From the NCBI RefSeq assembly GCF_014905115.1, contig NZ_CP041235.1, forward strand, positions 1,798,001-1,862,000: a stretch of 64,000 bases of DNA, in the 5' to 3' direction. Shown one piece after another: positions 2,314 to 21,412 of this stretch. The translations under genes and the position numbers were made by a program. Each line of letters begins with the position of its first letter. Positions within the stretch are counted from its first letter, which is position 1. The notes beneath the pieces were generated by a model. It searched no databases, was not told the origin of the DNA, and saw nothing but the letters and a program-made list of their open reading frames with translations. Source of the DNA: Sulfurimonas sediminis (GTDB lineage: Bacteria; Campylobacterota; Campylobacteria; Campylobacterales; Sulfurimonadaceae).

Positions 2314-3472
2314 GTAGTTTCTCTTGCAGTTCTAAAAGCTTTTTGTTTAAACTTTCTGCATGTTTCTTAGCAAAGTCTTTTGAAATTTCTTCATTTGCAT
2401 GATCTACATATGGTCTAATCGATTCAGGAGATTTCCAACCCATAATATGTCTTATTATTTCATCGCTAAGATTTAGTTCTCCTCCAACCATTGCTTTTAC
2501 AAGCTTTGTTGCTTTGTCAGAACGGCCAGAGTGTGTTCTCACATTCCCTTTTATTCCTGCATTTTTAGCTGCTCTAACCAATGAATCTCTGTATGAAGCG
2601 GCTTTATATTCATTAAATAAAATCTCGCCTTCTATAGCTTTAGTATTTACAAAGAGATATTCACTGCTCTTTTTAGACTTTACTTCTGCAGGGTTTCTCT
2701 CATTCAAGATATAGTTCTCAATAACTCCTATTGTCTGATCTCCAAAGAGAATAGTTCTTTTTCTACCTCTTCCTTTGCCTTTAGAACGAGATGGCTTAAC
2801 GGTACACTCTCTAGGATTATAGTCCTTAAGCTTTATGGATAAAACTTCATCTATTCTCATCCCGTGTAATGTAGCTAAGAATATTGCGCGATTTCTATAG
2901 TTTCTAAAATTACTATATATTGCTTTAACCTCTTCATCCGTATATTCCAAAATATATTCTTTTGAACTAGTTTTGTGCTTTGTAACAAATAGATCTATCG
3001 TTGCATCAGCTATACTACTAATATCATTCCATCGCAACGTAAGAGCTGTGCTGTATTCAGAAAGTTTATTATTGTCCCATTTATTTATCTGAAGCACACT
3101 ATGTTCAGAGTATTGCCATAAAAATTTATAAAACTTCACTATAGTTTCTTTATGTTTCTGAATTGTATGATATGTAATTTCTGGTTCAGATATTATCTCA
3201 TTTTTCTTGATATCAAAATTAATAATATACAGCATATATGCTTTTACATCTTCATCTGATGCATTCCAATATTCTACATTCCTATCTAATAGAAAATTAA
3301 AATACTTCACTAATATATACCCTATTCCTTTGCCATAATCTAAAGAATTTTTCGATTTATTACTAACATAGAGACTTGAATAAAAATCAGGAATATTTGG
3401 TTTACAAATATGATAAAACTCATCCGCTCTACCATTTTTGTGTACCTTTTTTCCCTTTTGTAATTTATACAT
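2306..3472 (-). CDS. Tyrosine recombinase/integrase
   Basis: This 388-residue protein has the full catalytic set of the phage-integrase family: Arg206 in HGMRIDEV, His314-x-x-Arg317 in THSGR, His342 in RHIMGW, and the nucleophile Tyr355 in RPYVDH. The first ~170 residues form the SAM-like core-binding part. It would catalyse site-specific DNA strand exchange, moving or inverting a genomic element. A start at 3472 is preceded by TTAGGA at suitable spacing. The stop overlaps the start of the larger recombinase. It lies directly downstream of the BREX operon on the same strand, separated by 177 bp, which makes an island-mobility role plausible; no att site was identified. Confidence 0.88.
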   Translation of the reverse strand: MYKLQKGKKVHKNGRADEFYHICKPNIPDFYSSLYVSNKSKNSLDYGKGIGYILVKYFNFLLDRNVEYWNASDEDVKAYMLYIINFDIKKNEIISEPEITYHTIQKHKETIVKFYKFLWQYSEHSVLQINKWDNNKLSEYSTALTLRWNDISSIADATIDLFVTKHKTSSKEYILEYTDEEVKAIYSNFRNYRNRAIFLATLHGMRIDEVLSIKLKDYNPRECTVKPSRSKGKGRGRKRTILFGDQTIGVIENYILNERNPAEVKSKKSSEYLFVNTKAIEGEILFNEYKAASYRDSLVRAAKNAGIKGNVRTHSGRSDKATKLVKAMVGGELNLSDEIIRHIMGWKSPESIRPYVDHANEEISKDFAKKHAESLNKKLLELQEKLHD

Positions 3473-3649: not shown

Positions 3650-5674
3650 TTACTCCACCCCAACAGCCTTAAACACTGCATCAATTGGGTCTGAGTAAAT
3701 AATAAGTTGAAACTTACTCATTAACTCTGGTGGGACTTTCGCCATTTGTGTCATATCAACAGCAGGAAGTAGTATTTTCTTTGCTCCACTATCACTTGCA
3801 ATTTGTAGAGCATCTGGAAGACTTTCTGTACCTGTAATTGTTCCACCAATATTCATACTGCCAAGAACTACCATTTGAGATAGTAATGGTTTTTCAAGAA
3901 CACCACTACATAAAGATACAAATATGGCTAACTCAATATCTTTTGCTTTACCTACACCGTTAAGGTCACTTGCTTTTAAGTGATAATCAAAATCTTTATA
4001 TTTAACACCCAGTGACACACGATGTAAATTTGCTTGTATATAGTTTGCAGCTTCTTTTATCTCTTCTTTTATAGCTGTTCCACTAAATCCAGTAGTATCA
4101 AGTTTTCCACCACCTGCCATTACTTGCAAGTCTAATCTAAACAGACCTTTATGACCGTTATCTGGATTGTATGAAACAGTATATAATGAACCATTTGGAA
4201 GTTGTCCATCTGGAATAAGTGCATTTCCACCACTTTCGGGAACGGCTACTCTTATCTCACTATCATCTTCTATATCAATATAAGAGAAATTTACATCGTA
4301 AAATTCCATGCCACCTATCTTTTTCAGTTGCTCTTTTATGCGTCTTCTACCAACAAGTGCATATTCTAATGCCACTCTTACATCTTCTTTATCATATACA
4401 CCATTTGGGTGCATAAGTTTTAGAAGACCACTTACAGTTTTTTTAACAGCACGGCTGTCTCTTTGGTTCAAGTCCTTACCAAGCTTAAAATACTTATCAA
4501 TAGCATTGGAGTAGTTCATCTTTTGAAGCTCTCTCATCCACTCTGCCATAAAGTCCGTAATGAACCCATACTCATTAGTGAAAAACTCTGTTCTCATCTT
4601 AGGGATTTCCCACCCTGGGAGATAGTTGTGAAAACGGTCAAAAAATGCAGTATCTATCATCTCTTTTGGAAATGGAGAGAGCAAGTGAGAAGTTTTTATG
4701 ATGTTCTCTATACTTCCATCAATATTTCCAACAAACACAAATGAAGCTTTGGCTTGTTTTTGCTCTTTACCCCTTGCAAATGAACCACTTTCCATATAAT
4801 CTTTCATTATTTGTATGCCATCTTTATCTTTGAAGTTAATTCCTGCTACTTCATCAAATGCTACAATATCCCAATTACCAACAAGACCAATAGTTCTACT
4901 ACTCATATTATAAAAGAGATTCGCAACAGTAGTTTGACCACCACTTACAAGTATGGAGTTAGGCGAAATCTCTTTATATACAAATGATTTACCCGTTCCT
5001 CTTGGTCCAAGCTCACACATATTGTAGTTGTTCTCTACAAATGGGATTAAACGAGCTAATAAGTGCCATTTAGTATTTATCTCAAAATTAGTTGGCTCCA
5101 TTCCAGAGCTTCTTATAATTATATCCATCCATTCATCATTAGTGAATTTACCTCTTTGGGCTTGAAACTCTTCCATATCCATATTTGGCATTTGAATGGG
5201 TTTTAGGTCTTGTATATGAAAAGGAGATGCACCTTTGGCATTTTCATCATAGTAGTATTCAAGAGTAACTATGACCCATATACCACCTGCAAGTAACTTT
5301 TGGTATTTTTTTACATACTCTTCATTGATAACTATTTTTTTAATACCAAGGTTAGAGAACTCTGCTTCATACACATCATCTTTTTCATTGAGCTTTACAG
5401 AGACTTTATCTATAACTTTATAACGACCTTTCTCTTTTATACGAGATTTGACAACCTCTTTCTCATCTGGTCTTACATAGTTTTTAGCAAGTATATATTT
5501 AACCTTGGCAACACCTTCTTGTATGAGCTCTTCATTATCAGTTGCACAATACATACCAAGCAAATACTCTAATACATAAATAGGAACATTTGCTCCCTCT
5601 TTAATGCTTTTTGTCAAATCTTTTCTTACTACTTTACCTATAAACTCTTCATTTAGTTTGCTATTCAAATCCAT
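3650..5674 (-). CDS. brxL: BREX protein BrxL (AAA+ ATPase with Lon-like C-terminal domain)
   Basis: Last gene of the BREX operon, 674 residues. BrxL assembles into a DNA-encircling AAA+ ring required for phage restriction in type I BREX. An N-terminal domain (about 1-180) is followed by the ATPase core with Walker A GPRGTGKS at 223-230 and Walker B VAFDEVAG at about 271-278. A C-terminal Lon-protease-like fold covers roughly 540-674 (conserved stretch GSMNIGGTITG). The canonical Lon serine motif GPSAG is not visible; the equivalent stretch reads NGVGKAKD, so proteolytic activity is doubtful. The gene starts 8 nt after pglZ ends. Confidence 0.93.
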   Translation of the reverse strand: MDLNSKLNEEFIGKVVRKDLTKSIKEGANVPIYVLEYLLGMYCATDNEELIQEGVAKVKYILAKNYVRPDEKEVVKSRIKEKGRYKVIDKVSVKLNEKDDVYEAEFSNLGIKKIVINEEYVKKYQKLLAGGIWVIVTLEYYYDENAKGASPFHIQDLKPIQMPNMDMEEFQAQRGKFTNDEWMDIIIRSSGMEPTNFEINTKWHLLARLIPFVENNYNMCELGPRGTGKSFVYKEISPNSILVSGGQTTVANLFYNMSSRTIGLVGNWDIVAFDEVAGINFKDKDGIQIMKDYMESGSFARGKEQKQAKASFVFVGNIDGSIENIIKTSHLLSPFPKEMIDTAFFDRFHNYLPGWEIPKMRTEFFTNEYGFITDFMAEWMRELQKMNYSNAIDKYFKLGKDLNQRDSRAVKKTVSGLLKLMHPNGVYDKEDVRVALEYALVGRRRIKEQLKKIGGMEFYDVNFSYIDIEDDSEIRVAVPESGGNALIPDGQLPNGSLYTVSYNPDNGHKGLFRLDLQVMAGGGKLDTTGFSGTAIKEEIKEAANYIQANLHRVSLGVKYKDFDYHLKASDLNGVGKAKDIELAIFVSLCSGVLEKPLLSQMVVLGSMNIGGTITGTESLPDALQIASDSGAKKILLPAVDMTQMAKVPPELMSKFQLIIYSDPIDAVFKAVGVE

Positions 5675-5682
5675 ATTAACCC

Positions 5683-8154
5683 CTAAAAATCATCATCAAA
5701 ATCATTGAAAAATGATAATGCTAACTTCACTTCAAACTCTTTATATATTGGAGTTTCACTACTTCCCTCAAGAACTTTTTTCGTTACAAGTTTAATGTTC
5801 TGGTTATTATACTCATTTATGTTCTGCTTGAAAGTCATCTTAAATCTTGTTTCTCTATTTGTATCATACTGTTCAGTAGAGTTAAAGGTATGCTTGAACT
5901 CATCAGAGAGCAATACACCATCAAGACTTTGAAATGATATTTTAAGTGTTATCGGTTTAGTCTTATCATCAACTACTTCTGATTGGTAGAGCGATACATT
6001 AACAGTATTGGTAGATATATTTCTCATCGGTATAATATCTACATTTACATCTTTAATATTTGATGATTTGCCTTTTTTAATATTAACCTCGATGAGTGGT
6101 ATTACCAACTCTTGAAGTGAAGCTCCACCGTGTATAAAACGATTGCCTCCACCTTGAACTCTTATTTTACTGATTGACTTTGGTATCAGATACTCATTAT
6201 CTCCACTAATACCTAAATTATCACCGCTATATTTAGCCACACAAGTTCCATCTTCCAAATTTTTACCAATAATAAACCTTCTATTTATTTTTATAGCATT
6301 TTGTATCTCAACCTTGCAAAATTCACTATCAGCAGTTGCTTGGTTGGTATAAAGAAAACCGTGATCACTTGTGATTAATATATTTGATCCATTAAAGTTA
6401 GAAATTTGCTTAATGATTTTAATAATGCTCTTAAATGTACTTTGCACTGCATCAAATGTTTTTATTTCGTTTTTTTCTCCCATTTTATCAATCTCATCAT
6501 GGTAGATATAAACAACACTTGCATTTTTTACTAACTCTCTACCTTCATCTCTTTTATATTTTAAGAAATCTTCATAACCAATAGCCATTGCATTTTCATC
6601 GTATGATTTTAGTATTTTATCTCTATTGGCTATCCCAGATGATGATTTGTCATCTACAAATACAATATCATTTTTATTTTTTATAGATAACTCTTTATGA
6701 GGTAATAGACTTGCCATTCCAAGCTGTGTATATGATGGTAACGAACTTAGCATGCTATTACAAGTTGCACTAAATCTATCTTTCTTTTTGTTCTCTGCTA
6801 AAATTTGTGAAGTTAGTTCGACTCCACACTCATAACGCAAAGCATCAGAGATAATGACAAATACTTTGTTTTTCCTTTGTAAGTATGGTTGCACTTTAGT
6901 GTTATAAAACTGTTGTTGATGTGCAATTGCTGAAGTGGTAGAATAAGTTTGGGCGAAACTTTGCCAGTTGTCATTTAACTCTCTTAAATAAGAGTTTAAA
7001 TAAACATCTTCTACCTTAGAGTTAAGAGGCTTTAATAGTTCAAGGTGTTCAGCTTTGCTTGAATGTATAGAGTAATCTCTATAATATCTATCTGCTTTAT
7101 ACCAATGAGTAGAATACTCATTTATCCCATCTTGAAAACTTTTCATAGTAAGTTTGGTATCTTTTACAAAGTCAAAGAGTAGTGAAGCACTAAGAAGTGC
7201 CTTATAAATATTTTTATAGTTCTTAAACCAAAATGTATGCTCTCTAATATTAATAATTTTAGCCATTTCAGAAGAATTAATACTGTTACTATTTAACTTG
7301 CTAAGTAAATGCGATATAACTACTTGGTCGCACTTTTCATAAGTATCGCAAGAGATTATTTTTGAAATATCTATATCAATAATAATATTACCAATATTTA
7401 ATTCCTCACTAATCTCTTTTGAGATTTGTTCAAAACTATCTTTGTGTTTGCTGCTATCCATCCAACTTTTAACAAAAATTCTTGCATCAGAGTTTAGTAT
7501 GCTTTTGCTTTTGTCAAGTGAGTAATAAAAATGATTTTGAAAGAGTTTATGTAATAAATCTTTAACACTGTCTCCATCATAAGAGTATTTAGTTTTAACA
7601 GCTTTAAAAAATTCATCTGTAAGGTTATATTTGCTTAATGTTTCAAAGTGCTTGTCATTAGAGAATAGTTTTAGCATAATACTATCTATATTATCATCAC
7701 ACGATATGCTTGTAGCCATTATCTTAAGTGCAAGGCTATCTTGACTCTCTTTATCATTAAGCAAAGTTTTAAGGGTATTTAAATGAGTTTTAGAGTTAAA
7801 AAACTTATCAAACTGACTTACAAACTCTTTGAAACTGACATCAAGACCAAGATTTTGTAAAATTAGACTTATTTTATCTGCACTAAACATATAGTTAGCG
7901 ATGTTCAAATCAAGTAGCCAATTATCCTCATCTTTAGGGGGTTTAATAGGAGAATATATAAGAAATTTATCATTTTTTTGCAAACTCAATACTTGTCGTT
8001 TTATGCCAAACTCATTGTTATCTATTTCAAGTTTAGTTACATCATCTAACTTTATTACTTCAAACTCATTTTTTAAAGCACCATTATCATCATACCAAAA
8101 CACCAATCTCTCTTTTTGGAAGATTGTTTTTAATCTTTGTTGTATATCTATCAT
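5683..8154 (-). CDS. pglZ: BREX protein PglZ (alkaline-phosphatase-superfamily protein)
   Basis: An 823-residue PglZ, one of the two signature BREX proteins. The alkaline-phosphatase-like core is visible as ISDALRYE with Asp at about residue 437 and TSDHGF with Asp-His at 597-598, both metal-site motifs of the superfamily. The N-terminal ~380 residues are helical and of the BREX-1 type; the last ~130 are beta-rich. Purified PglZ proteins have been proposed to act as phosphatases or nucleases; the role in vivo is not settled. It lies 1 nt after the 60-aa ORF and 8 nt before brxL, within one transcription unit. Confidence 0.94.
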   Translation of the reverse strand: MIDIQQRLKTIFQKERLVFWYDDNGALKNEFEVIKLDDVTKLEIDNNEFGIKRQVLSLQKNDKFLIYSPIKPPKDEDNWLLDLNIANYMFSADKISLILQNLGLDVSFKEFVSQFDKFFNSKTHLNTLKTLLNDKESQDSLALKIMATSISCDDNIDSIMLKLFSNDKHFETLSKYNLTDEFFKAVKTKYSYDGDSVKDLLHKLFQNHFYYSLDKSKSILNSDARIFVKSWMDSSKHKDSFEQISKEISEELNIGNIIIDIDISKIISCDTYEKCDQVVISHLLSKLNSNSINSSEMAKIINIREHTFWFKNYKNIYKALLSASLLFDFVKDTKLTMKSFQDGINEYSTHWYKADRYYRDYSIHSSKAEHLELLKPLNSKVEDVYLNSYLRELNDNWQSFAQTYSTTSAIAHQQQFYNTKVQPYLQRKNKVFVIISDALRYECGVELTSQILAENKKKDRFSATCNSMLSSLPSYTQLGMASLLPHKELSIKNKNDIVFVDDKSSSGIANRDKILKSYDENAMAIGYEDFLKYKRDEGRELVKNASVVYIYHDEIDKMGEKNEIKTFDAVQSTFKSIIKIIKQISNFNGSNILITSDHGFLYTNQATADSEFCKVEIQNAIKINRRFIIGKNLEDGTCVAKYSGDNLGISGDNEYLIPKSISKIRVQGGGNRFIHGGASLQELVIPLIEVNIKKGKSSNIKDVNVDIIPMRNISTNTVNVSLYQSEVVDDKTKPITLKISFQSLDGVLLSDEFKHTFNSTEQYDTNRETRFKMTFKQNINEYNNQNIKLVTKKVLEGSSETPIYKEFEVKLALSFFNDFDDDF

Positions 8155-8155
8155 A

Positions 8156-8338
8156 TTATTTTTTATACTCTTTTGGTATATCCTGAGTTATCGTTCCATC
8201 TGGTAACTGAAAAAATAGCTGTTTATTTTTACTATAAACATTCGCTATTCCTTTTTTAAAGCTATCTTTTTGAGCATCTTTAACTGCTTTTTTACCAATT
8301 TTAATTATCATCATTTCCAAATTACTCATTTTCTCCAC
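8156..8338 (-). CDS. Small protein paired with the zeta-like kinase
   Basis: A 60-residue basic protein whose start overlaps the last 17 nt of the zeta-like kinase gene and whose stop lies 1 nt before pglZ. Its second half (KQLFFQLPDGTITQDIPKEYKK) has the look of a small beta-rich fold; no catalytic motif is seen. The overlap implies coupled translation with the kinase, so a toxin-antitoxin or ligand-partner relation is plausible. Classical zeta or PezT antitoxins precede their toxin, whereas this gene follows it. Function unknown. Confidence 0.65.
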   Translation of the reverse strand: MEKMSNLEMMIIKIGKKAVKDAQKDSFKKGIANVYSKNKQLFFQLPDGTITQDIPKEYKK

Positions 8339-8879
8339 CTTCTAAAAATAGATTTTTTAACTCTTCATCATAGAGTTCATCTTGATTTTCAACTAACTCA
8401 AAATTATCATCGCCATTAAAAAATAACATCCACTCATCACACAAATCTTTGTATATATTTTGAAACAATTTTCTACTTCTATAATATCGTCTTGCAATAT
8501 CTTCCGCAGGAACATTGTGCCCACCTTTTAAGACTCTATTTTTAACACGATAAATATTTTCAGTATTTGTTTCTAAAAATAGATATATCAAAGATATTTT
8601 AAATCCTTGGTGTTTTGCCTTAGCTATTATTTTAATAAGATACTTACCAGATAGTGTTGTCTCGATGATAAAAGAGTTCTCCTCATCTAACGAGACATAC
8701 AACTCTTCAAAAAACTTTTTCCCAGCTTTCATCTTATACTTTTGAATATCATTTGGATCATACTCTTTTGCAATTTCATCTGCATTTATAAATTTTAAGT
8801 TTTGAAGCTGTGCAAAATTCATAGCAAAGGTCGTTTTTCCACTCCCATTTGCACCTGCAATTATATAAAGTGTTTTCAT
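8322..8879 (-). CDS. Zeta-toxin-like P-loop kinase (COG4185 type)
   Basis: A 185-residue P-loop protein beginning MKTLYIIAGANGSGKTT, with Walker A GANGSGKT at about 9-16, an ADE motif near residue 33, IIETTLSG in the middle and the basic segment GGHNVPAEDIARRYYRS, all typical of zeta-toxin-like predicted kinases. Zeta toxins phosphorylate UDP-N-acetyl sugars; the substrate of this subgroup is not known. The ATG overlaps the stop of the pglX C-terminal gene by 4 nt (ATGA). Zeta-like genes are not core BREX components, so this is an accessory module carried in the operon between pglX and pglZ. Confidence 0.85.
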   Translation of the reverse strand: MKTLYIIAGANGSGKTTFAMNFAQLQNLKFINADEIAKEYDPNDIQKYKMKAGKKFFEELYVSLDEENSFIIETTLSGKYLIKIIAKAKHQGFKISLIYLFLETNTENIYRVKNRVLKGGHNVPAEDIARRYYRSRKLFQNIYKDLCDEWMLFFNGDDNFELVENQDELYDEELKNLFLEGGENE

Positions 8880-10612
8880 TTACAAAGCCCTGTTATAGGA
8901 TAAAGTATATCCCTAAATTTACAATAATTTACCTTAACTCCATCATCTAAGTCTATCTCTGTTGGATTTTGAGCAAAGTGCATCATTTTATCTCTATCAA
9001 ACTCTATAATCTCTTTTAGTTTTGCATCTATAGCTTTCATTTGTTTATCTGCTGATTTTTTATCGGCATTAGATGCTGTATCTGACGAGGTTGTAAGAGT
9101 TAGCGTTTCTTTGTGTGCTTCAAGCTTTGCTATGTATTCTGTTAAGTAAGAGTTTCTTACTCTTGCAAATGTATCTGCTTCATATCTGTGCATATAGATT
9201 AAACTCATAAAGCCTTTTTTTGGAGATGCTACCATCCAATAGATTGGTCTTTTTTTGTATCTTTTTAGGTGGTCTTCATAGAAACCTTTTACAAAATACT
9301 TTCTTAGAGTTGTTCCAAGTGAGTTTTCTATAAACCTAATGTTCTCACTTAAATCTTCTTCTCCAAATGTAGCTTTGACAAACTGCACAAATCTTGAAGC
9401 TATATCGTCTTTGAAGTAGTCATCTTCAAGCACGGGGATAACATTGTCATCATCTATTTCAAATGTAGTAGATGGTGGCACTTCTTGACCAATATTTGCA
9501 ATCAATAGTCCATCACTATCAAGTGAGTATCTACCGAACATCACACCAACACCATAAGAGATAAACTGCTTCATAATCTCATCTGCTTGAAATACTAACT
9601 CATTATCTATTATCTTAGTTTCATTTTTGAGTATCGTTATATCTTTTAGTTCTACATCTGGTGTAAGTTCATCTTGTAGCTCATATATATCTATGAAGAG
9701 TTTGTTTAGTTCTTCTTCATTTTGATGTAGTGTGTTAAACTTCTCCCTCCAATAGTCACAGTAGTTTGAGTATGCTGTTTCTATTTTACTGTCATTTTTA
9801 TGTTTTATGAGTTCATTCTTTGTGAAGTCCCACGATATTTCTCTACTGTCCCATTCTTGTTTTGCAATAGAAATATTAGTTTTCACTATTGTATTTATTA
9901 TTTCTTCTTTGTGCTTAATTAAAGGTATTTTAATTATGTCCCCAACCTTAAAATCCACAGTTGGAGCTAAAATTTCTAAAAACTTCATACCAACACAGCT
10001 ATTAATCAATGCAATAAAGTATTCTATATTTTTATCACTGAAACCCATTGCCCCTTTTGAATCAAACATAAAACCATAATTAGAAAATCTTACAGAAATC
10101 TTAGAACTACTCAGTGCTGCCCAAGTCATTCCTTTTTGAAAAGCAAATTCACCATTATAATTATGAGACCTAAGTCGTCCAGTTTTTTGGTCAATATTAT
10201 TTTTTACTCCATATCCATCATTCTGCCAATCAACAAGATATTCATTGTTTCCATACCATTTTCTAAATTCTCCCCCTTTGTTGTATGGGAACCACCTTTT
10301 ATGTGATTTATTTGCTTCATCTATCGTTTGTAAGTTGAAACCTATATCATTAAAATTAGCTTCATTCCAATATCTTAGAAATCTATCATTATCAGCAGTT
10401 GCCATTCCTTCTCTTGTAATAACTTCATTACCTAAAAAAATATTTTTTGAAAAATGATTAATTACAGTATCACTTAACCAATAAGCAATATAATTTCCTG
10501 GGATATTAGAAAAATCTTCTTGTTTAGCTTTATATCTATTTTCAGGATTAAAAAACTCTTGCTCTTTTTCATCACTACTTTTGTAGTCTGTTAGTCTTAT
10601 GTATGTTGCCAT
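8876..10612 (-). CDS. pglX: BREX methyltransferase PglX, C-terminal half (split gene)
   Basis: This ORF carries the C-terminal half of PglX: it begins MATYIRLTDYKSSDEKEQEF and continues with PGNYIAYWLSD, the target-recognition and C-terminal region that in ordinary PglX follows directly after the AFVLEN strand of the methyltransferase domain. It has no SAM or NPPY motif. An upstream ATG at 10624 is in frame, but GGAG lies 6 nt before the ATG at 10612, so I chose the latter. Together with the N-terminal ORF (530 residues) it makes up the usual ~1100-1200 residues. The separating sequence is a complete reverse transcriptase gene. It is likely to reassociate with the N-terminal half in trans; that is inference. 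Confidence 0.88.
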   Translation of the reverse strand: MATYIRLTDYKSSDEKEQEFFNPENRYKAKQEDFSNIPGNYIAYWLSDTVINHFSKNIFLGNEVITREGMATADNDRFLRYWNEANFNDIGFNLQTIDEANKSHKRWFPYNKGGEFRKWYGNNEYLVDWQNDGYGVKNNIDQKTGRLRSHNYNGEFAFQKGMTWAALSSSKISVRFSNYGFMFDSKGAMGFSDKNIEYFIALINSCVGMKFLEILAPTVDFKVGDIIKIPLIKHKEEIINTIVKTNISIAKQEWDSREISWDFTKNELIKHKNDSKIETAYSNYCDYWREKFNTLHQNEEELNKLFIDIYELQDELTPDVELKDITILKNETKIIDNELVFQADEIMKQFISYGVGVMFGRYSLDSDGLLIANIGQEVPPSTTFEIDDDNVIPVLEDDYFKDDIASRFVQFVKATFGEEDLSENIRFIENSLGTTLRKYFVKGFYEDHLKRYKKRPIYWMVASPKKGFMSLIYMHRYEADTFARVRNSYLTEYIAKLEAHKETLTLTTSSDTASNADKKSADKQMKAIDAKLKEIIEFDRDKMMHFAQNPTEIDLDDGVKVNYCKFRDILYPITGLCK

Positions 10613-10626
10613 TTTATTCTCCATTA

Positions 10627-12264
10627 TTATTGCCCATCATATACCGAAAAAGAAATATCATTTATATCTATTATTTCAGGTGTATTTTGAATTGAACTAT
10701 GATTTACAATTTTATTTTTATTGAAAATTTCAACAATATTTGCTTGTAGCCAACAATTGTTCCATAACTTAATATCTTCTCCATTAACTAATCTACACAT
10801 TTTTTCTTTTAATTGTAATTTTTGATAGTCTAATTTAATTATTGACCGTTGAAGCCATATCTCCATATAACCAGTATTGGGGATAGTTTGAAATTTCATT
10901 ATTGTTTTCTCAGCGATTTCAATAACACTCTTATCCTCAATTAAAGTAAATAATTTATTAATAATTGCAATAGAAATAGTATAAGCTTTTGGATTATGAA
11001 AAGCTATATTGACAACTATACTAATTAAAACATTTATATTGTTTTTTTCTATAAAATTCTTTTTCTTCTTAATGTTAATTTTACATAATTTATCAAAATG
11101 GTATTGATAATCTTCAATAGTAAGAACTCTTTTTTTTATTGTATATTTGAAATTAATTAAAACTTTTTTTATAGTTTTATCTCTTGTCATTATATTAATA
11201 TTAACAAGAATATTTTGAAGTTCTTTTTCTAATGTTCCTGAATTTGGATGTTTATTAGAAAATTGATGTAATACCAAAAGTTGTTTTTGAACTGATATAG
11301 ATTTTTTACCTCTACTCATCCAATCAAGTTTATCAGGTTTAATTGAAGCACCTATTATATCATTTGACATAAATGTTTTATGAGAATTTAGTTTCAATCC
11401 TAATTCTATTAATACTTCTGTTAAATTTTTTATGATTTCATCTGCTATGTTTGGATTATTTACAAATATTCTATAATCATCCCTATATCTTAATATTCTA
11501 AAATCACTTTTATTGTATTTATTCTTTAATTTAACACTTAGAAGTAGGTCAGCATAGCTCAAGACTATTTCTGCAATAAAATCCATAAGAATACTACCTT
11601 GAGGAATACCATTTGTTTGACTATTGGACATTGCTTGTATATGTATATCAATATCATTACCAATAAAATATTTTTTTGATTTTTTAGTCCAATTATATTT
11701 GATGTTATTTTTTGAATGAATTGCCCAAGGAATTGAATGAGTATATATAGACCCATAGCAATCACTGATGTCTGTATGATATATAGAACTAAATTCAAGA
11801 CTTAATTCTAAAGATTTTTGTTCTATATTCTCCCACCAAAATAATATTTGTTCTTTTTTTGAAGATTGTTTTGTTTCAGAAACGATTGGTAGGCTCATAC
11901 ATTCAACAATACTTCTTTTTTTTATTTGAAGAAACCTATCCTTTATTTTTTTCCAATTTTCTTCTTTTGTAATTTGATTTACTAAAGATACATATATTAC
12001 GGGATGAATTAATTGTATCGGTCTCCAATCATGCTTCCCATTTTTATTAGTTAATAACTTATAGTTTATATCTTCATAGTTTTTAGGGTTTTCATTAGGA
12101 TTGGCAAACTTAATAAACTTTTCTTGTTTCAATTCTTTAGATAGTTCCAAAAGTAAATTATTAAATTCAAAGTATTTAGGTAAGTTAGTTGTAATATAGC
12201 TTTCTTGCTTTAATAAAAAGTCTTTTGCCTCTTGAAAATTAAGAGAAAGAATATCCTTAGGCAT
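10627..12264 (-). CDS. Reverse transcriptase inserted within pglX
   Basis: A 545-residue RNA-directed DNA polymerase. Motif A is HTDISDCYGS with Asp165; the next conserved block is NGIPQGSILMDF; the catalytic motif is YRDD at 260-263, in the X-x-D-D form. The polymerase domain ends near residue 330 and is followed by ~215 residues of predicted helices, the layout seen in Abi/UNK-group defence reverse transcriptases rather than in group II intron or retron enzymes. No maturase or endonuclease domain is seen. The ATG overlaps the stop of pglX(N) by one base (TAATG) and the stop lies 2 nt before an in-frame ATG of pglX(C), leaving no room for a retron-like ncRNA. The gene is visibly richer in A/T than the flanking pglX halves, suggesting separate acquisition. 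Confidence 0.92.
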   Translation of the reverse strand: MPKDILSLNFQEAKDFLLKQESYITTNLPKYFEFNNLLLELSKELKQEKFIKFANPNENPKNYEDINYKLLTNKNGKHDWRPIQLIHPVIYVSLVNQITKEENWKKIKDRFLQIKKRSIVECMSLPIVSETKQSSKKEQILFWWENIEQKSLELSLEFSSIYHTDISDCYGSIYTHSIPWAIHSKNNIKYNWTKKSKKYFIGNDIDIHIQAMSNSQTNGIPQGSILMDFIAEIVLSYADLLLSVKLKNKYNKSDFRILRYRDDYRIFVNNPNIADEIIKNLTEVLIELGLKLNSHKTFMSNDIIGASIKPDKLDWMSRGKKSISVQKQLLVLHQFSNKHPNSGTLEKELQNILVNINIMTRDKTIKKVLINFKYTIKKRVLTIEDYQYHFDKLCKINIKKKKNFIEKNNINVLISIVVNIAFHNPKAYTISIAIINKLFTLIEDKSVIEIAEKTIMKFQTIPNTGYMEIWLQRSIIKLDYQKLQLKEKMCRLVNGEDIKLWNNCWLQANIVEIFNKNKIVNHSSIQNTPEIIDINDISFSVYDGQ

Positions 12265-13856
12265 TATTTATTTTTCTCCAAAACAAAAGCTACACTCTGA
12301 ACAACTTCTCCACCAATCTCTTCAAATGCTCTTGCACCCAAATGAACCATAGTGTCTATTCTCTGCTTTTCAATGATTTTAATTCTAAGTTTCTCATAGC
12401 TACTCAGGAACATCCAAGAGTGTTGATTTATCATACTCATAAAACCGTGAGGTTTTGTAAGCTCTAATGTTCTCTCCATAAAAACTGCAAACAAATCAGA
12501 CTTACTATCTGGGTATCTTTTCTTCACAAAATCACTAAGCTCTTTGTTCATACCCTTTGAACCCATATACGGAGGGTTTGTAACTACACAATGAAACTCA
12601 GATGAGAGTATCTTCTTTTGTATCTCATACTCTCTTGTAGATTGACCAAAGATACCATCATCAAATGAACTATCACTATAAGGAACTAAAAGAGAACCAA
12701 AGTTTTTAATCCCTGCAAACTCATCACTTGCATAATCTTCAAGCTCAACTATGTTTGGTTTTACATCTTTTTTGAAAAATCTTTTATGATACTGTCTTGC
12801 TTTCATAGTTAGAGCAAAATTAGCCAATACAGAAGCTCTTTTGTCTATATCGCAACCAAATAGATTATTTTGGAGTATGAGAGATGGGATTTCACTTTTG
12901 TTGTAGCCTTCCTCCTCATAGATTTTTGTTAGTAGATCAAAAGCATAAGTAAGTGTATGACCACTACCACAACAAGGGTCTAAAAAAGTTATCTCCTCTG
13001 GTGAGCTTACTTTTATAAATGTACTTGTTTCTTCTTCATTTTCTATATAGTATTTCATATACTCTTTTAGGTTTGAAGTTGGATTATTTAGCATCCACAA
13101 TTTACCAAGAGAGTTTTCAACCATATACTTCACTATCCAGTGAGGTGTAAAGAGTTGTGTTGCTGCTGGTATATTACTTGGTGTGATTTTTTTGTTCTTT
13201 TTGAGCATTACAAATACATCATCTTTTTTCTCTGAGATGTAGAACTGATACAACCAACCAATCACTTCTATATCTTGACAATCCTCTTCACTCATAGAGC
13301 TTACAACTTTTGCTCTGATGGAGTTAGGACTTAACATATCTTCTGGAAGTAGTAGCTCTGTATAATCACTAATCTTTTCAAACATAGATGACATAAGGTT
13401 TGCATACTCATTACAAGTGGAGATAAAGAGCATTTTATAAGCTTCATTATCACTATCTTTTACACCAGACACCTTTTTATCTATGAGGTCAAAAAACAGC
13501 TCTCTGTTTAGATTTAGAGTATCTTCTATCGTTCCAGACTTAGCTTCTATAAACATTTGAGGTATTGGTTGTTCATCAGATGTAGATATAACTGAACTTG
13601 AAGTTATCTCATTAACATCCATAAACCTAAGAGCCACAAGACGGTTGAACCAAGTATAAGCAACTTCTTCTATGAAATCTTCACTATCCTTTGAGTATCT
13701 CTCTTCTATCAGTTGTATGTGAGCCTTGTTGGTGTTATAAACTGCTAAGTTCTCTTTGTAAGCATCTGAAAGTAAATAATCTATCTTAGTCTTAATCATA
13801 GAGATAAGTTCAAGTCTCATAGATGTGGCGAATTTTTTAAGTGCTGATTTGTTCAT
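12264..13856 (-). CDS. pglX: BREX methyltransferase PglX, N-terminal half (split gene)
   Basis: A 530-residue ORF holding the N-terminal and adenine-methyltransferase domains of PglX, which modifies host DNA at the BREX motif. Motif I is FLDPCCGSGH (Asp293 to His300) and motif IV is NPPY at 427-430. The protein ends AFVLEKNK, exactly the strand after which an intact PglX continues. The stop then overlaps the reverse transcriptase start by one base. All methyltransferase catalytic motifs are here, while the specificity region is in the downstream half. Both halves remain open over their whole lengths, which argues for retained function. Confidence 0.9.
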   Translation of the reverse strand: MNKSALKKFATSMRLELISMIKTKIDYLLSDAYKENLAVYNTNKAHIQLIEERYSKDSEDFIEEVAYTWFNRLVALRFMDVNEITSSSVISTSDEQPIPQMFIEAKSGTIEDTLNLNRELFFDLIDKKVSGVKDSDNEAYKMLFISTCNEYANLMSSMFEKISDYTELLLPEDMLSPNSIRAKVVSSMSEEDCQDIEVIGWLYQFYISEKKDDVFVMLKKNKKITPSNIPAATQLFTPHWIVKYMVENSLGKLWMLNNPTSNLKEYMKYYIENEEETSTFIKVSSPEEITFLDPCCGSGHTLTYAFDLLTKIYEEEGYNKSEIPSLILQNNLFGCDIDKRASVLANFALTMKARQYHKRFFKKDVKPNIVELEDYASDEFAGIKNFGSLLVPYSDSSFDDGIFGQSTREYEIQKKILSSEFHCVVTNPPYMGSKGMNKELSDFVKKRYPDSKSDLFAVFMERTLELTKPHGFMSMINQHSWMFLSSYEKLRIKIIEKQRIDTMVHLGARAFEEIGGEVVQSVAFVLEKNK

Positions 13857-13867
13857 AGTTGGTTCTC

Positions 13868-14608
13868 CTAAAATTTATTATATTCTAAATGTACTGACTT
13901 GACATCAAATTGATCATTATAGCCCAAGAGTATTTTTAAGTCATTGAGCGATTTTATTACATCAGAGCGAGACATCTTCTTTTTTGAATATTTTGGATTT
14001 GATTTAATGCTTTCACCTATTCTTCTATGATGGCATATATCGTTACGAGCATTTCTAACTATTGAAAACAGTCCTTTCACTAAACCTTTGTTATGATACT
14101 TAGGCTTACCATCTTTTGTTAAGATAGCAGCAGTATGAAGCTTTGCTTGAAACACATTTCCAAACCTTGAACCATTGAGATACACCAGTTCTAATGTCCC
14201 AAAAGAGATACTATTTAATGCTTTGGATGGTTTATTTATTTGTTTCATTATTTTCGTTTGAAACTCAGTTAAATCCTGCATTATAGAGTGTTGATGCCAT
14301 TTATTACCATATGCTTTAATCATTTTATGATTTATGTAAGTTCTTAAAAAGGCTTCAAATTGACTAATTTGTATATACATAAAGTAGTATTGATTTGTTA
14401 TCTTATTAACTTCATCAATATATTGTTTAAGGGTATATTTACCATCTTCTGGAAGGATTGTCCTGTTATAAATAAGTGCATTAACTGCATCTTCCAAAAT
14501 AAACTTCTCTTTTTGTGCGATAAGATTGAGAGCTATCTCTTTTTCCCTATCATTTTTAGGGATAATATTATTGCTTAGCAGTATACTATTGTAGTGTTTA
14601 TTGTTCAT
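13868..14608 (-). CDS. Abi_2-family (AbiD/AbiF-like) HEPN abortive-infection protein
   Basis: A 246-residue mostly helical protein resembling the Abi_2 family. The C-terminal part contains VRNARNDICHHRRIG, in which Arg-Asn-Asp-Ile-Cys-His forms the Rx4H motif characteristic of HEPN ribonucleases. The related lactococcal AbiD/AbiF proteins abort phage infection; activity here is inferred. It sits between brxC and pglX, 11 nt before the pglX start, and its start codon lies inside the end of a 40-codon ORF. It is not a core BREX gene. Confidence 0.82.
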   Translation of the reverse strand: MNNKHYNSILLSNNIIPKNDREKEIALNLIAQKEKFILEDAVNALIYNRTILPEDGKYTLKQYIDEVNKITNQYYFMYIQISQFEAFLRTYINHKMIKAYGNKWHQHSIMQDLTEFQTKIMKQINKPSKALNSISFGTLELVYLNGSRFGNVFQAKLHTAAILTKDGKPKYHNKGLVKGLFSIVRNARNDICHHRRIGESIKSNPKYSKKKMSRSDVIKSLNDLKILLGYNDQFDVKSVHLEYNKF

Positions 14609-14720: not shown

Positions 14721-17700
14721 TTATAATAATACCTGTTTCCCATTACCAATTTCATTTAATAGATTTTCTTTTAACTTTTCAATATACTCATTTACATCAT
14801 CACTATTTTTTAGAGTAAGTTTATTACGAGGTGTTAGTTTTGCTATACGAACTGTATCTTGTTTTGGTGGAACAATTACATCTTGTGGGATTAGTTCAAA
14901 TATTTTTTCAAGACCACGGTTTAGTTCATCAGCAAGTGCATCTGCATTACTTCTTTGTTTGATAGTATCTATACTTGAAGTGTGCTTGATAGTTTCTATT
15001 AACTCCTGTCTTGGTCTTATGACTTTATATCTATCTTCTCTTGGTATCTTTTCAAAGTTTTCATTCTCTTGTAGCTCTTTTATCACTGCTTCTATTTTAG
15101 TAATCGCTTCTGCTCTTGTTTGTTCTATAAGTGGTTGTAGCCACTCTTCTACATCTTTTAGTGCTTGTTTTGCTTTTGGTATAGTATTTCCATTATATGG
15201 CTTCTCTAAGGTTAGGAGTGTTTCTATAACAGCTTTTTGAGGACTATCTATATATCTGAGGTTGTTACTATTTTCATCTATAAACTTCTTTACACTGTCG
15301 TATATCTTTCGTTTGTCACCGTTCATAAATTCCATAACAGGGTCTATCAAGTCATCTTTGGCATCAAGTAAGTCATCTTCCATATTTGGAATTTCATCAA
15401 ACAGAGTGTCTGTCGTTAATTTTTCTAATGGAGTTAAAACATCTATAATCTCTTGAAACACATCGTTAAATGGATAGTTCAAGTTCATAAAGTTTCTACA
15501 AGCAGATATAAGCTTGGTTGTTTCACTCTGGCACACATCGTAAATCTCTCTTGTAGATGTAGAGTTAAACGAAGCATTTGGATAAAGCTCAGTCAGTGTC
15601 TCTTTTGTTTTCTTTATCTTGTTGGCATCTACTTCTACTCGTGGTGCTACAATAGTGTTGAACTGTCTGTTATTTGTAAGAGCAGCTAAAATCTCTTTTT
15701 TATTGAGCGGTGTTGAGTTCTGCTTCAAATCAACTTTTTGTTTCATATACATAGAAGCTATTTGAGTGAGTATCGCATTTTGATACCATCCATACGGTCT
15801 AACAGAAAAGTATTCAAGTAAATCTGAAATAGTTAACGTTTTATGTGAAGCCTTTTGTCTCCGGATGTAAGTGTACATCTCTTGTTCAGCAGGAGAGAGT
15901 GCATCATCGCTTCCTGTAAGCAAATCATCGCTTTGATTGAGAACAACACTTATATCTCTCTCTTCATAAACTTTTGGAAGCAAACCAATGTAGGTATATG
16001 TGCTTGTGATAAGAGTTTCAAAAGCATTTTCTATTTTTGTTTTGACATCTTTTGTGGTAATCTCTAAGACTTTACCGTTATGATAAATCTTTGCTTCACT
16101 AATGAAATCTTTTAGATTATTTTGAAGTTTTTCTCTTCTTTTGTTGTTGTCATTAGATTTGTTAAACAGTAGATTTTTTTCATTATCAGAAACACCACCA
16201 CCTTGTTTTTGAGGAATATATTTATTAGTCTTTACCCAGAGTTCCAAATCTGATGAAAAATCGTAAGAACCTGGAAGTGCCAATATCAGACCACTATCTG
16301 CAAGGGATTTATGGATCAATCTCTCTTCATCATAATCTTGTGAGTTTAGAGGAGTAATAATGTTAAGTACCAATTCCTCCTCTCTTCCTTTAACTATAGT
16401 ATCATCAAGCTTTCTTGCAAATGGGTAGTTTTGCTTATTTGGTGCATATCTGATTTTATTGATCTTAATTATGTCATCATAAATCCAACTTACAAGCACA
16501 CTCACAATCTCAGAGTTTTCAACATCAGTAGATTTAATCTCTTTTTCAATATCCTTTTCAACATCAGTTAAGAACTCATATTGTTCCCCAACCTTTTGAA
16601 TATATGTTTGATTAATAAGAGTGTTTAATGCACTTTGAACTTGCTTTTTTAAATCACTTATATCTATGTCTATGATTGTTCCAACAAGTAAAGTCGTAAT
16701 GTTATCTATATTTGGCGTAAATTCCTTGACATACTTAATCATAAAGAGAGTTTTTAATACCTTAGATTCAAACGGTTCAAGTGTATCTGTTGCTTTTTGT
16801 ATCTGCGTTTGAACATCTCCACGAATGATAGAAGAGAGACCATCAAAAAACATATCAAATGTAGCTATTGCTCCTATCGTCTCTGATGATATTCTCTTTG
16901 CGATGTTTTGCACAACATCAAGCATACTTCGCTCACCCGTTGATTGGTGCTTCCCTTGAAATACACTGTGAGCAGACAGCCCTGTGATACAAGACTGAAA
17001 TAAGTCCATCTGATAAGGAACAAATGGGTAGACAAGAGCAAAGTGTTCGCCATCTTTATAGTTTTGATATTGTCTGCTTCTATCTGAGAAGTGAATGATT
17101 GAAGAGAGAGAATTTTTGACTTTGTTGTAGATTACACCTAAGTCACTGTTTCCTCCATCTGTTTTTTCCAAGAGTCTCTTTTGAATAACTTCATTTGCAT
17201 TTTGACTGGTAAGATTTAATTTTACCTTGAAACGACCCATAATCTTAGAGAAGTCATTTTGCATTTGTGAGTTGGCATTTACAAGCATATCAACAGCAGA
17301 TTGAGAAGTAACAATAACCCAAGCTTGCCCATTACAAACAGTTGCAAGTGTTTCTACAATAGTTTGCAGGTTTAACATAAGCTTTGTGTTGTCTCCAATG
17401 TATTGACCAACTTCATCCACAAAAAATACTAATCTAAAATCTTTTTCTTTGGTTTGAATATATTCTTTAACTTCATTAGCAAACTCTTCAATACTGAGTG
17501 AATAATTCTCTTCATATCTATCTATTAAATCTTTTGCACTCTCTTGTGAAATATCATCTACACTTGAAAGTGCTTTGGCAAGATTATCACTCTCTAAAAA
17601 GATGGTCTCACGACCGCTTTCCCAACTCTCTCCACTAAGTTCTTGAAATTTTGCTTTGAAACTATCAAACTTCCCTCGTTTATCAAGGTCACTCTCAAAT

Positions 17701-18203
17701 TTAGCGATATAGCCAAACTTAGGATAATACCCTCGCATCTCGTTAAATACTTTCATAAAAACACCAAGAATAGCATCATCTTGGTTCTTGCTTCCGATGT
17801 CTGATTTTTGGTCAATGTTAAACAGAATAGTCTCTGATGGCGTTACTAATGCTTTTTCAATATTTGCTTTTAACTCAAAGTCATCCGTATCAATCTTTTC
17901 AAGAAACAGCTCTCCTATTAGGTCTGAATGCTCTCGCTTGTTTGTAAGGATATAAGAAAGTATTTTTAAGAGGTGTGATTTACCAGAACCAAAGTGTCCA
18001 GAGATCCATACACCAATATTTTGAGTGCTCTTACCAATAGTAGCAGAATATTCTCCAAAAAATTCATCTAACTTTTTATTTAAGTCATTCGTAATAACAT
18101 ACTCATCAACCTCATTAAAAACAGCTTCGTCTGTTGTGTTGTCAGCTTTTACAACACCTTCAATATTTCTATGTATATCTTTTTTAAATAGTTTTTCAAT
18201 CAT
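14721..18203 (-). CDS. brxC: BREX protein BrxC (large P-loop ATPase)
   Basis: A 1160-residue BrxC/PglY-type ATPase, a core BREX component. Walker A is GHFGSGKS at residues 69-76; the stretch FRLVFFVDEVGQYIG near residue 265 looks like Walker B; VIVTSQSAVDML a little later resembles a sensor segment. The rest is long, helical and charged, as in other BrxC proteins. It acts with BrxB, PglX and PglZ in host-DNA methylation and phage exclusion. Nine bases separate it from brxB. Confidence 0.94.
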   Translation of the reverse strand: MIEKLFKKDIHRNIEGVVKADNTTDEAVFNEVDEYVITNDLNKKLDEFFGEYSATIGKSTQNIGVWISGHFGSGKSHLLKILSYILTNKREHSDLIGELFLEKIDTDDFELKANIEKALVTPSETILFNIDQKSDIGSKNQDDAILGVFMKVFNEMRGYYPKFGYIAKFESDLDKRGKFDSFKAKFQELSGESWESGRETIFLESDNLAKALSSVDDISQESAKDLIDRYEENYSLSIEEFANEVKEYIQTKEKDFRLVFFVDEVGQYIGDNTKLMLNLQTIVETLATVCNGQAWVIVTSQSAVDMLVNANSQMQNDFSKIMGRFKVKLNLTSQNANEVIQKRLLEKTDGGNSDLGVIYNKVKNSLSSIIHFSDRSRQYQNYKDGEHFALVYPFVPYQMDLFQSCITGLSAHSVFQGKHQSTGERSMLDVVQNIAKRISSETIGAIATFDMFFDGLSSIIRGDVQTQIQKATDTLEPFESKVLKTLFMIKYVKEFTPNIDNITTLLVGTIIDIDISDLKKQVQSALNTLINQTYIQKVGEQYEFLTDVEKDIEKEIKSTDVENSEIVSVLVSWIYDDIIKINKIRYAPNKQNYPFARKLDDTIVKGREEELVLNIITPLNSQDYDEERLIHKSLADSGLILALPGSYDFSSDLELWVKTNKYIPQKQGGGVSDNEKNLLFNKSNDNNKRREKLQNNLKDFISEAKIYHNGKVLEITTKDVKTKIENAFETLITSTYTYIGLLPKVYEERDISVVLNQSDDLLTGSDDALSPAEQEMYTYIRRQKASHKTLTISDLLEYFSVRPYGWYQNAILTQIASMYMKQKVDLKQNSTPLNKKEILAALTNNRQFNTIVAPRVEVDANKIKKTKETLTELYPNASFNSTSTREIYDVCQSETTKLISACRNFMNLNYPFNDVFQEIIDVLTPLEKLTTDTLFDEIPNMEDDLLDAKDDLIDPVMEFMNGDKRKIYDSVKKFIDENSNNLRYIDSPQKAVIETLLTLEKPYNGNTIPKAKQALKDVEEWLQPLIEQTRAEAITKIEAVIKELQENENFEKIPREDRYKVIRPRQELIETIKHTSSIDTIKQRSNADALADELNRGLEKIFELIPQDVIVPPKQDTVRIAKLTPRNKLTLKNSDDVNEYIEKLKENLLNEIGNGKQVLL

Positions 18204-18212
18204 TTTTTATCC

Positions 18213-18794
18213 TTACAAATTGAGAGTATCAAGATTAAATGCTCTATAATAGTTGTCATCTTTGAGTCTGCCAAACAAAGATAAGTCAGCGGTATAAGTT
18301 CCAGGAAAGAACATAATAGTGGGTCTGTCTTTGATGTAGTTTTGAAGATTGTTGAGTATTGTATGAGAACGAATAAATGGGAAGACTTGACCGATACCCG
18401 TTAAAAAAAGCATTTTTGACGGGTTCTCTTTTGCTAATGCTTCAATGCGAGGTATGAGTTTAGTCTCACTATCAAGCACACTTTGCAGTGTTTTGAAGAG
18501 TTTTGAATTAGAGAGAGTTTTCTCTTTTTCTATAAGCTTCTCAAGTATGCCTCTCTCTTCGAGTATATTAAGAGATAAATCAAATAGATTGATCTCAAAT
18601 ACGCTAACACCATCACGAGCTAAACGGTCTTTGAGCTGTTTTGTCTTTTTGACAACATCATTCTCTTGTTCAGGATTATATGGCACAATGTAAAACGGTA
18701 TCTCTCCACCCAATGCACTCATAGATAAAAAGCTCTTTTTTTTGAGGTTATTAAAGAGTTTATCGTATTTCACTTCCAATGCTTCTAATTTCAT
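18213..18794 (-). CDS. brxB: BREX protein BrxB (DUF1788)
   Basis: A 193-residue protein matching BrxB (DUF1788) in size, position and the conserved ends: LFLTGIGQVFPFIRSH in the middle and MFFPGTYTADLSLFGRL near the C-terminus. It is small, soluble and without a catalytic motif; it is required for BREX methylation and defence. The start overlaps the end of brxA by 4 nt. Confidence 0.93.
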   Translation of the reverse strand: MKLEALEVKYDKLFNNLKKKSFLSMSALGGEIPFYIVPYNPEQENDVVKKTKQLKDRLARDGVSVFEINLFDLSLNILEERGILEKLIEKEKTLSNSKLFKTLQSVLDSETKLIPRIEALAKENPSKMLFLTGIGQVFPFIRSHTILNNLQNYIKDRPTIMFFPGTYTADLSLFGRLKDDNYYRAFNLDTLNL

Positions 18795-19435
18795 TTATAT
18801 CTCTTTATATGTTCATTTATCTCGTTGTCACTATATAAAAAACTACTAAGATATTTTGGGTCATCTTGGACTATTAGTTTTATAAGTTCTTCTGAAAGAT
18901 ATGGTTTTTGAATATTCTTACTTTTAACACTATCAATCAATCCGGCTTGCTCAAACATCTTAAACATCACTTGTTTGAGTTTGTATTTGGTTCCCTCAGA
19001 AATAGTATTGAGATTGTCGTATGCAATTCGTTTGCTGTCATAAAATGCTTCATAGTCACTGTTGATAAGTTGAAAATCAAAAAGGAGCAGTTTATTTCTC
19101 ATAACCTCAGTTGCAAAATCAGAGATAAAAGCATAGAGCTTAAAGCAACTCAGCATCGTAAGATTTTTAACATCGCAACTTGTTGCCTCTTCATAATATG
19201 CCAGTTGTTCTGATGTTAAAGTTTGAAGTCTTTTTTTGAACTCAATGAATTCTCTTTTTCGTGTAGCAATTGTTCCTTTTTGCAAAGCATCATCATCTAT
19301 AACACTCTTCGCAACACTGTCCCAATCAAGAGTCTCTTTGTAAAGTAAAGCAATAGTTTCAGCTTCATAAGCCTGTAGTGATACGGCTGTATATGATAAA
19401 AGATATTTTAATGTCACGACAATATTACCACCCAT
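18791..19435 (-). CDS. brxA: BREX protein BrxA (DUF1819)
   Basis: First gene of the BREX operon. The 214-residue helical protein with KYLLSYTAVSLQAYEAETIA at its N-terminus fits BrxA (DUF1819), a small DNA-binding protein with a winged-helix fold. The start at 19435 lacks a good Shine-Dalgarno; a GTG a few codons in (VTLKYLL) is an alternative. The IS1182-like element ends about 135 bp upstream. Confidence 0.9.
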   Translation of the reverse strand: MGGNIVVTLKYLLSYTAVSLQAYEAETIALLYKETLDWDSVAKSVIDDDALQKGTIATRKREFIEFKKRLQTLTSEQLAYYEEATSCDVKNLTMLSCFKLYAFISDFATEVMRNKLLLFDFQLINSDYEAFYDSKRIAYDNLNTISEGTKYKLKQVMFKMFEQAGLIDSVKSKNIQKPYLSEELIKLIVQDDPKYLSSFLYSDNEINEHIKRYK

Positions 19436-21184: not shown

Positions 21185-21188
21185 CTAG

Positions 21189-21405
21189 TCGGTGTCTTTT
21201 ACCTTGAGGTTTCCGATAGTCTGTCACCTCTGAAAACAATTTTAAAAGTTGATTTGATTGGGCTTGATCTGCATACCCTCTTATAGAACGCTTTTTCGCT
21301 AATTTTTCTCTTGTTTTTGTTGCCATATGTAATCACTTTAGTTTTTTAGAGTTTAAGCAATTATTGTTCTTCTTTTAAATTCCTGTTTTTTTAGGATTGG
21401 GGTGC
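21189..21405 (-). mobile_element. Truncated ISAs1-family copy (copy 1)
   Basis: This ~220-bp segment is nearly identical to 22453-22670, the transposase-start end of the neighbouring ISAs1-family element; the differences I see are one T in a homopolymer and one T/C change. It carries the first ~47 codons of the transposase (start at 21326) before running into the IS1182-like end, which produces a 61-codon chimeric ORF with no function. It ends in the terminal repeat aggattggggtgc at 21393-21405. Confidence 0.8.
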
Positions 21406-21412
21406 AATAGTT

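What the first reader, a model, noticed from the sequence alone, without database searches (positions are those of the whole stretch)
8876..13856. A reverse transcriptase splits the BREX methyltransferase gene pglX into two open halves
The N-terminal ORF ends AFVLEKNK and the C-terminal ORF begins MATYIRLTDY, which in ordinary PglX are contiguous. Between them is a complete 545-residue reverse transcriptase (YRDD at 260-263). The junctions are tight: one-base overlap at the front and 2 nt at the back. Each side has a similar short sequence (TGGAGAA-AATAAA at the N-terminal end, TGGAGAATAAAATGG at the C-terminal start), which looks like a duplication that gave pglX(C) its own GGAG and ATG. Neither half is decayed. 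The result may be a three-protein unit in which methylation or exclusion is coupled to reverse transcription. That would be a BREX variant I do not know of; it could be a domain-split PglX that reassembles, with the RT as a second-line defence triggered when BREX is breached.
Basis: partly seen in the sequence, partly recalled or inferred. Interest (0 to 1): 0.92.

Follow-up and report, generated by a model that had tools for sequence, protein, structure and literature searches.

The report
Split BREX methyltransferase carrying nested Abi-polymerase
In this bacterium the DNA-marking enzyme of the anti-virus system BREX is encoded as two separate genes, catalytic half and target-reading half, with an abortive-infection polymerase gene packed between them; relatives keep the same split but carry other defence genes in the slot, so the split is a standing feature and not a broken gene.

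Summary
On the minus strand a type 1 BREX operon (brxA-brxB-brxC-abi-pglX(N)-RT-pglX(C)-zeta-pglZ-brxL) has pglX cut into two intact ORFs around a 545-aa reverse-transcriptase gene. The supposed flanking duplication is not above chance. The RT is an Abi-P2-family polymerase with catalytic motifs and putative priming tyrosine conserved. Neither half is decayed (dN/dS about 0.08-0.13 outside the specificity region); each folds as its part of PglX. The arrangement is not unique: split loci in Campylobacterota and Deferribacterota start pglX(C) at the same residue, with different genes in the slot (HEPN, KAP ATPase, DUF3644, RhuM). Two loci carry the halves in the opposite order, so they are independent genes. 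A fused Sulfurovum pglX is the empty-site counterpart at 86-88% DNA identity. Separate splits with Schlafen/AlbA cargo occur in Chlorobi, gammaproteobacteria and archaea. RT inside pglX was found only here, but Abi-P2 genes sit at the prrC position (hsdM-hsdS-RT-hsdR) in other Campylobacterota. Best reading: split-PglX BREX with an exchangeable internal cargo slot, here holding an abortive-infection polymerase as probable second-line defence. Reassembly and RT triggering are inferred, not shown.

The parts
18791..19435 (-). brxA
   Evidence: PADLOC BrxA E=5e-62
18213..18794 (-). brxB
   Evidence: Pfam BrxB 1e-42; PADLOC
14721..18203 (-). brxC ATPase
   Evidence: Pfam BREX_BrxC domains; PADLOC E=0
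13868..14608 (-). Abi-like accessory gene (cargo slot brxC|pglXN)
   Evidence: weak PADLOC PDC-M34B; same slot holds Abi_2-like L040 4522-5127 and PemK toxin L132 5509-5919
12264..13856 (-). pglX(N): helical N-domain plus adenine methyltransferase domain up to strand beta6
   Evidence: Pfam Eco57I/N6_Mtase, PADLOC half-length PglX model PDLC02525 1e-213; AlphaFold model matches PglX 8c45, TMq 0.85
10627..12264 (-). Abi-P2-family reverse-transcriptase-like polymerase (internal cargo)
   Evidence: PADLOC AbiP2 2e-182; PDB 7r08 4e-75; YRDD 260-263, motif A HTDISD, conserved Tyr31
8876..10624 (-). pglX(C): target-recognition domain, spacer and C-terminal region; likely start codon at 10612 (M5)
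   Evidence: PADLOC half-length PglX model PDLC02516 1e-229; AlphaFold model matches PglX C-half, TMq 0.87-0.89
10613..10629 (-). RT stop and GGAG ribosome-binding site just before the likely pglX(C) start
   Evidence: sequence
8322..8879 (-). zeta-toxin/AAA_33-like accessory gene (cargo slot pglXC|pglZ)
   Evidence: Pfam Zeta_toxin 5e-8
5683..8154 (-). pglZ
   Evidence: Pfam PglZ 3e-58
3650..5674 (-). brxL
   Evidence: Pfam BrxL_ATPase 9e-146
2306..3472 (-). tyrosine recombinase at the island edge
   Evidence: Pfam Phage_integrase 9e-17

Best explanation
This is a type 1 BREX system whose PglX is a two-subunit enzyme. PglX(N) carries the methyltransferase. PglX(C) carries the target-recognition domain, spacer and C-terminal domain, and in this lineage also the strand that follows the beta6 turn. 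I infer that the two are co-translated from one operon and reassemble non-covalently into a working PglX, much as HsdM and HsdS do. The gap between them is an exchangeable cargo slot that relatives fill with different defence genes. In this genome it holds an Abi-P2 polymerase, which most likely works as an abortive-infection effector behind BREX; it may be held in check by the PglX/BREX complex and released when a phage inhibits that complex, as PrrC is with EcoprrI. Shown here: the anatomy, intactness and purifying selection of both halves, shared split with swapped cargo, both gene orders, and an empty-site counterpart. Inferred: subunit reassembly, BREX methylation, DNA synthesis by this RT, and any coupling of the RT to BREX.
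For: Both halves open and conserved: dN/dS 0.08-0.10 for pglX(N), 0.11-0.13 for distal pglX(C) against split and fused relatives. Each half models well alone (mean pLDDT 85) and superposes on solved PglX. Same split with other cargo: L132 (94% identical pglX(N) protein, RhuM + 345 aa), L040 (DUF3644 + 348 aa), L037 (DUF6161, HEPN, KAP), L122 (156-aa homologue of the L037 HEPN gene), L044 (164 aa). Swapped order C-cargo-N: L145 and L043. Tree: the split loci of Campylobacterota and Deferribacterota fall in one supported clade (SH-aLRT 99) that includes one fused gene, L041; at least 4 state changes overall. L041 is colinear at 86-88% DNA identity in both arms, with about 20 nt where the window has about 1.66 kb. 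RT is Abi-P2, with catalytic residues and Tyr31 invariant among nine homologues. Abi-P2 genes lie between hsdS and hsdR in L137 and L139, and beside an HsdR-like remnant in L138, the position of prrC (PMC3014915).
Against: No expression, methylation or phage data. RT inside pglX seen in one genome only. The isolated PglX C-terminal domain of Salmonella could not be expressed alone (PMC11341690), so reassembly is not guaranteed. One split relative (L039/G036) has no N half left, so some split systems decay. Some Abi-P2 genes (L140, L141, Paracoccus plasmid) have no restriction neighbours.
Confidence: 0.72

Rival explanations
1. The halves are functional split PglX, but the RT is an independent passenger: a stand-alone abortive-infection gene that uses the permissive slot for expression and co-transfer, with no regulatory link to BREX. 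(This overlaps with the best explanation and differs only in the guard step.)
For: Cargo in the slot is unrelated from genome to genome; Abi-P2 also occurs alone or in P2 prophages and polymerises DNA by itself (PMC9508834).
Against: Abi-P2 genes repeatedly sit beside the specificity module of methylation-based restriction operons; tight overlapping junctions suggest co-translation.
Confidence: 0.4
2. A recent disruption: insertion of the RT inactivated pglX and the BREX system is dead or dying.
For: RT in pglX was found in one genome only; a related split locus (L039) lacks its N half.
Against: Purifying selection on both halves, own start and ribosome-binding site for pglX(C), same split shared by a clade across two phyla, halves in swapped order in two loci, all other brx genes open and full length.
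Confidence: 0.06
3. The RT is a retroelement (group II intron, retron or diversity-generating element) that retrohomed into pglX or diversifies it.
For: It is an RT inside a gene.
Against: No Rfam intron or other RNA family match; no room for intron RNA or an intergenic ncRNA (1-nt overlap, 2-nt gap); best match is Abi-P2, E=2e-182.
Confidence: 0.02
4. RT and split PglX form one obligate machine in which methylation or exclusion is coupled to reverse transcription.
For: Overlapping reading frames and likely co-expression.
Against: Close relatives have the same split PglX without an RT (L132, L040, L037).
Confidence: 0.07

Closest known systems
Type 1 BREX PglX/BrxX (Salmonella 8c45, E. coli 9ewz)
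   Same: Same gene context and domains; both halves superpose on it
   Different: Known PglX is one chain; [quoted passage not shown] Here MTase and TRD are separate genes.
Type I restriction HsdM + HsdS
   Same: Separate methyltransferase and specificity polypeptides
   Different: Here the halves are the two parts of a PglX-type protein and the system has BREX genes, no HsdR
PrrC in the EcoprrI operon (hsdM-hsdS-prrC-hsdR)
   Same: A toxic effector gene nested inside a methylation-based restriction operon; in other Campylobacterota Abi-P2 takes the prrC position
   Different: Effector here is a polymerase, placed inside the methyltransferase gene; latency control by BREX untested
Abi-P2 polymerase (PDB 7r08, P2 prophage)
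   Same: RT fold, YRDD, putative priming tyrosine conserved; about 33-36% identity
   Different: Located inside pglX instead of a P2 prophage
BREX-associated auxiliary/backup effectors (PMC12839542; PARIS, Schlafen, HEPN, GmrSD-type)
   Same: Defence genes within the core BREX locus
   Different: That survey's main text mentions neither a split PglX nor reverse transcriptases

Membership tests
Type 1 BREX | brxA, brxB, brxC, pglX, pglZ, brxL in one locus | tested here: met
   All six present on one strand, pglX as two ORFs
Type 1 BREX | PglX as a single polypeptide | tested here: not met
   Two ORFs with a gene between; hence filed as a variant of BREX, not an ordinary member
Type 1 BREX | Site-specific N6-adenine methylation and phage exclusion | not testable with these tools
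   Needs native DNA sequencing and plating
PglX methyltransferase | SAM-binding GxG and NPPY motifs | tested here: met
   DPCCGSGH and NPPY present in pglX(N); invariant GSG and NPPY in alignments
Abi-P2 polymerase | RT palm motifs with catalytic aspartates | tested here: met
   HTDISD and YRDD aligned in nine homologues
Abi-P2 polymerase | Priming tyrosine in the alpha2-alpha3 loop (Tyr61) | tested here: met
   Window Tyr31 aligns with residue 61 of the 7r08 chain, provided the paper uses chain numbering; invariant
Abi-P2 polymerase | Template-independent protein-primed synthesis, trimer, abortive infection | not testable with these tools
   Biochemistry and phage assays needed
Group II intron | Intron RNA domains flanking the RT | tested here: not met
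   No Rfam match; junctions of -1 and +2 nt
PrrC-type restriction-linked effector | Effector gene nested in a methylation-based restriction operon | tested here: met
   Window anatomy; hsdS-RT-hsdR in L137, L139
PrrC-type restriction-linked effector | Kept latent by the restriction complex, released by an anti-restriction factor | not testable with these tools
   Experiment needed

The most novel reading that the evidence does not exclude
Split PglX is a distinct BREX subtype in which the methylation enzyme doubles as a tamper sensor: two subunits held together at the methyltransferase sheet, with the gene of a death effector co-translated between them, so that phage inhibition of PglX frees the effector (here a protein-primed polymerase). 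Cargo and specificity region lie side by side between conserved arms, so they could be swapped together by recombination.
Probability: 0.25. Interest if true: 0.9.

Novelty: new variant of a known kind. Interest (0 to 1): 0.74.

Why it matters
It shows that the central BREX enzyme can be encoded as separate catalytic and specificity genes, natural split points that could make target recognition and PglX biochemistry easier to study. It reveals an internal cargo slot that places unrelated abortive-infection genes in the same translational unit as PglX, extending the PrrC arrangement from type I restriction to BREX, and it makes testable the question of whether nested effectors guard the restriction system.

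Tried and rejected
Group II intron or other RNA element: no Rfam match, no room. DRT-type neighbouring ncRNA: no intergenic space beside the RT. Flanking duplication as an insertion scar: not above chance. Close RT relatives by pattern scan in genome contigs and viral contigs: none. Phages and plasmids hold only distant Abi-P2 relatives, all under 60% identity and below 40% in the listed best hits; the four plasmid contexts inspected were not BREX. Second RT-in-pglX case: none in 228 genomes of the family; in the phylum sample of 397 genomes the five other strong intact Abi-P2 genes lie outside pglX. Literature: full-text searches found no paper on a split PglX or an RT in BREX, within an open-licence library only. 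Promoters/terminators in the region: no excess over shuffles. A complex of the two halves could not be predicted, as the folding tool takes one chain.

Full report
Observation. The window carries a complete type 1 BREX locus on the minus strand: brxA, brxB, brxC, a 246-aa Abi-like gene, pglX(N), RT, pglX(C), a zeta-like gene, pglZ and brxL, followed by a tyrosine recombinase. pglX(N) (12264-13856) and pglX(C) (8876-10624) are both open, and the RT (10627-12264) overlaps the first by one base and precedes the second by two. Its claim of a flanking duplication is not: the similarity is reached by 99 of 500 shuffles and by starts of other genes in the operon.

The RT. It matches the PADLOC Abi-P2 model at 2e-182 and the solved Abi-P2 (7r08) at 4e-75. 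Motif A, YRDD and the tyrosine that aligns with residue 61 of the 7r08 chain are invariant in nine homologues. In the published work Tyr61 is needed for priming and the enzyme makes DNA without a template (PMC9508834); that the paper's numbering equals the chain numbering is my inference. No intron, retron or neighbouring ncRNA fits the junctions.

The split looks functional. Against a same-genus split relative (L132), a fused relative (L041) and L040, dN/dS is 0.08-0.10 for pglX(N) and 0.11-0.13 for the distal pglX(C), with a fast-changing target-recognition part between. AlphaFold models of each half have mean pLDDT 85 and superpose on Salmonella PglX with query TM-scores of about 0.85 (N) and 0.87-0.89 (C). 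The first residues of pglX(C) are among the poorly predicted parts, as expected if they need the other half; that is interpretation. The cut falls at about residues 610-619 of Salmonella PglX (read from the alignment), some 35-45 residues before the hinge at 654-659 (PMC11341690), in what I read as the beta6-beta7 turn of the methyltransferase domain.

The split is recurrent. A genome-contig scan with the C halves gave 80 loci; in 63 the pglX is one frame across the boundary, and about ten carry a separate pglX(C). In Campylobacterota and Deferribacterota pglX(C) starts at M-x-[T/I]-[Y/F]-[I/V]-RLT in the split loci, with different cargo: RT here; RhuM plus a 345-aa protein (L132); DUF3644 plus its homologue (L040); DUF6161, HEPN and KAP genes (L037); a HEPN homologue (L122); a 164-aa gene (L044). 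In L145 and L043 pglX(C) comes before pglX(N), with other genes between: the halves are independent genes. L041 from Sulfurovum is fused, 86-88% identical in DNA in the conserved arms, and has about 20 nt where the window has about 1.66 kb. On a tree of 74 C halves the 13 split ones need at least 4 changes of state; the Campylobacterota/Deferribacterota split rows fall in one clade (SH-aLRT 99) with L041 inside, and two other groups (archaea; Chlorobi, Methylococcaceae, Bacteroidota) are separate, with Schlafen/AlbA_2 cargo and a cut nearer the hinge. L037, L122, L132 and L145 were not in that tree, and whether L041 is a re-fusion or the ancestral state is not settled. 'Fused' rows there include a few contig-edge or frame-shifted genes, so counts are approximate. 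The scan favours close relatives of the window, so no overall frequency should be read from it. One split locus (L039/G036) has no N half detectable in its genome.

RT and restriction. Other strong Abi-P2 genes in Campylobacterota lie between hsdS and hsdR in L137 and L139, and after split hsdS frames beside an HsdR-like remnant in L138 (the L138 genes were named by resemblance, not by a family search); two (L140, L141) have no restriction neighbours. In a Pediococcus plasmid the RT is next to a DNA methyltransferase gene. prrC occupies the same place in hsdM-hsdS-prrC-hsdR and is held latent by the restriction enzyme (PMC3014915). This makes a guard role for the RT plausible but does not show it.

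Verdict. A real and recurrent architecture: split PglX with an exchangeable internal cargo slot. The main text of a 2026 BREX survey has no mention of a split or a reverse transcriptase, a 2025 review describes the TRD as integral to the methyltransferase, and PADLOC holds PglX models of half length, so such halves have been collected but, as far as I could find, not discussed. Literature coverage was limited to open-licence full text. Function of the split enzyme and of the RT remains to be tested.

Noticed in passing
L145 7617-8666; L132 8472-9509; L040 8033-9079: A conserved ~345-aa protein without PADLOC match (and no Pfam match where tested) recurs directly or one gene upstream of pglX(C) in three split BREX loci (44-61% identity).
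   Followed up: partly
L137, L138, L139: Abi-P2 polymerase genes nested in type I restriction operons between hsdS and hsdR, the position of prrC.
   Followed up: partly
L055, L062, L066, L074, L101, L105: pglX split near the hinge with Schlafen/AlbA_2-HATPase-type genes (plus DUF1016 nuclease in L062, L101) in archaea, Chlorobi, Methylococcaceae, Bacteroidota.
   Followed up: partly
window 22861-23955 and 37947-39041: Two identical 364-aa transposase-like ORFs; further transposase-like ORFs at 19712-22590 border brxA.
   Followed up: no
L039 (G036): BREX locus with pglX(C) but no pglX(N) detectable in the genome and a transposase-like ORF upstream: probably a decaying split system.
   Followed up: partly
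window 8322-8879 and L062 10824-11381: A very similar 185-aa zeta-like gene follows pglX(C) in the window and in a Methylococcaceae split locus.
   Followed up: no
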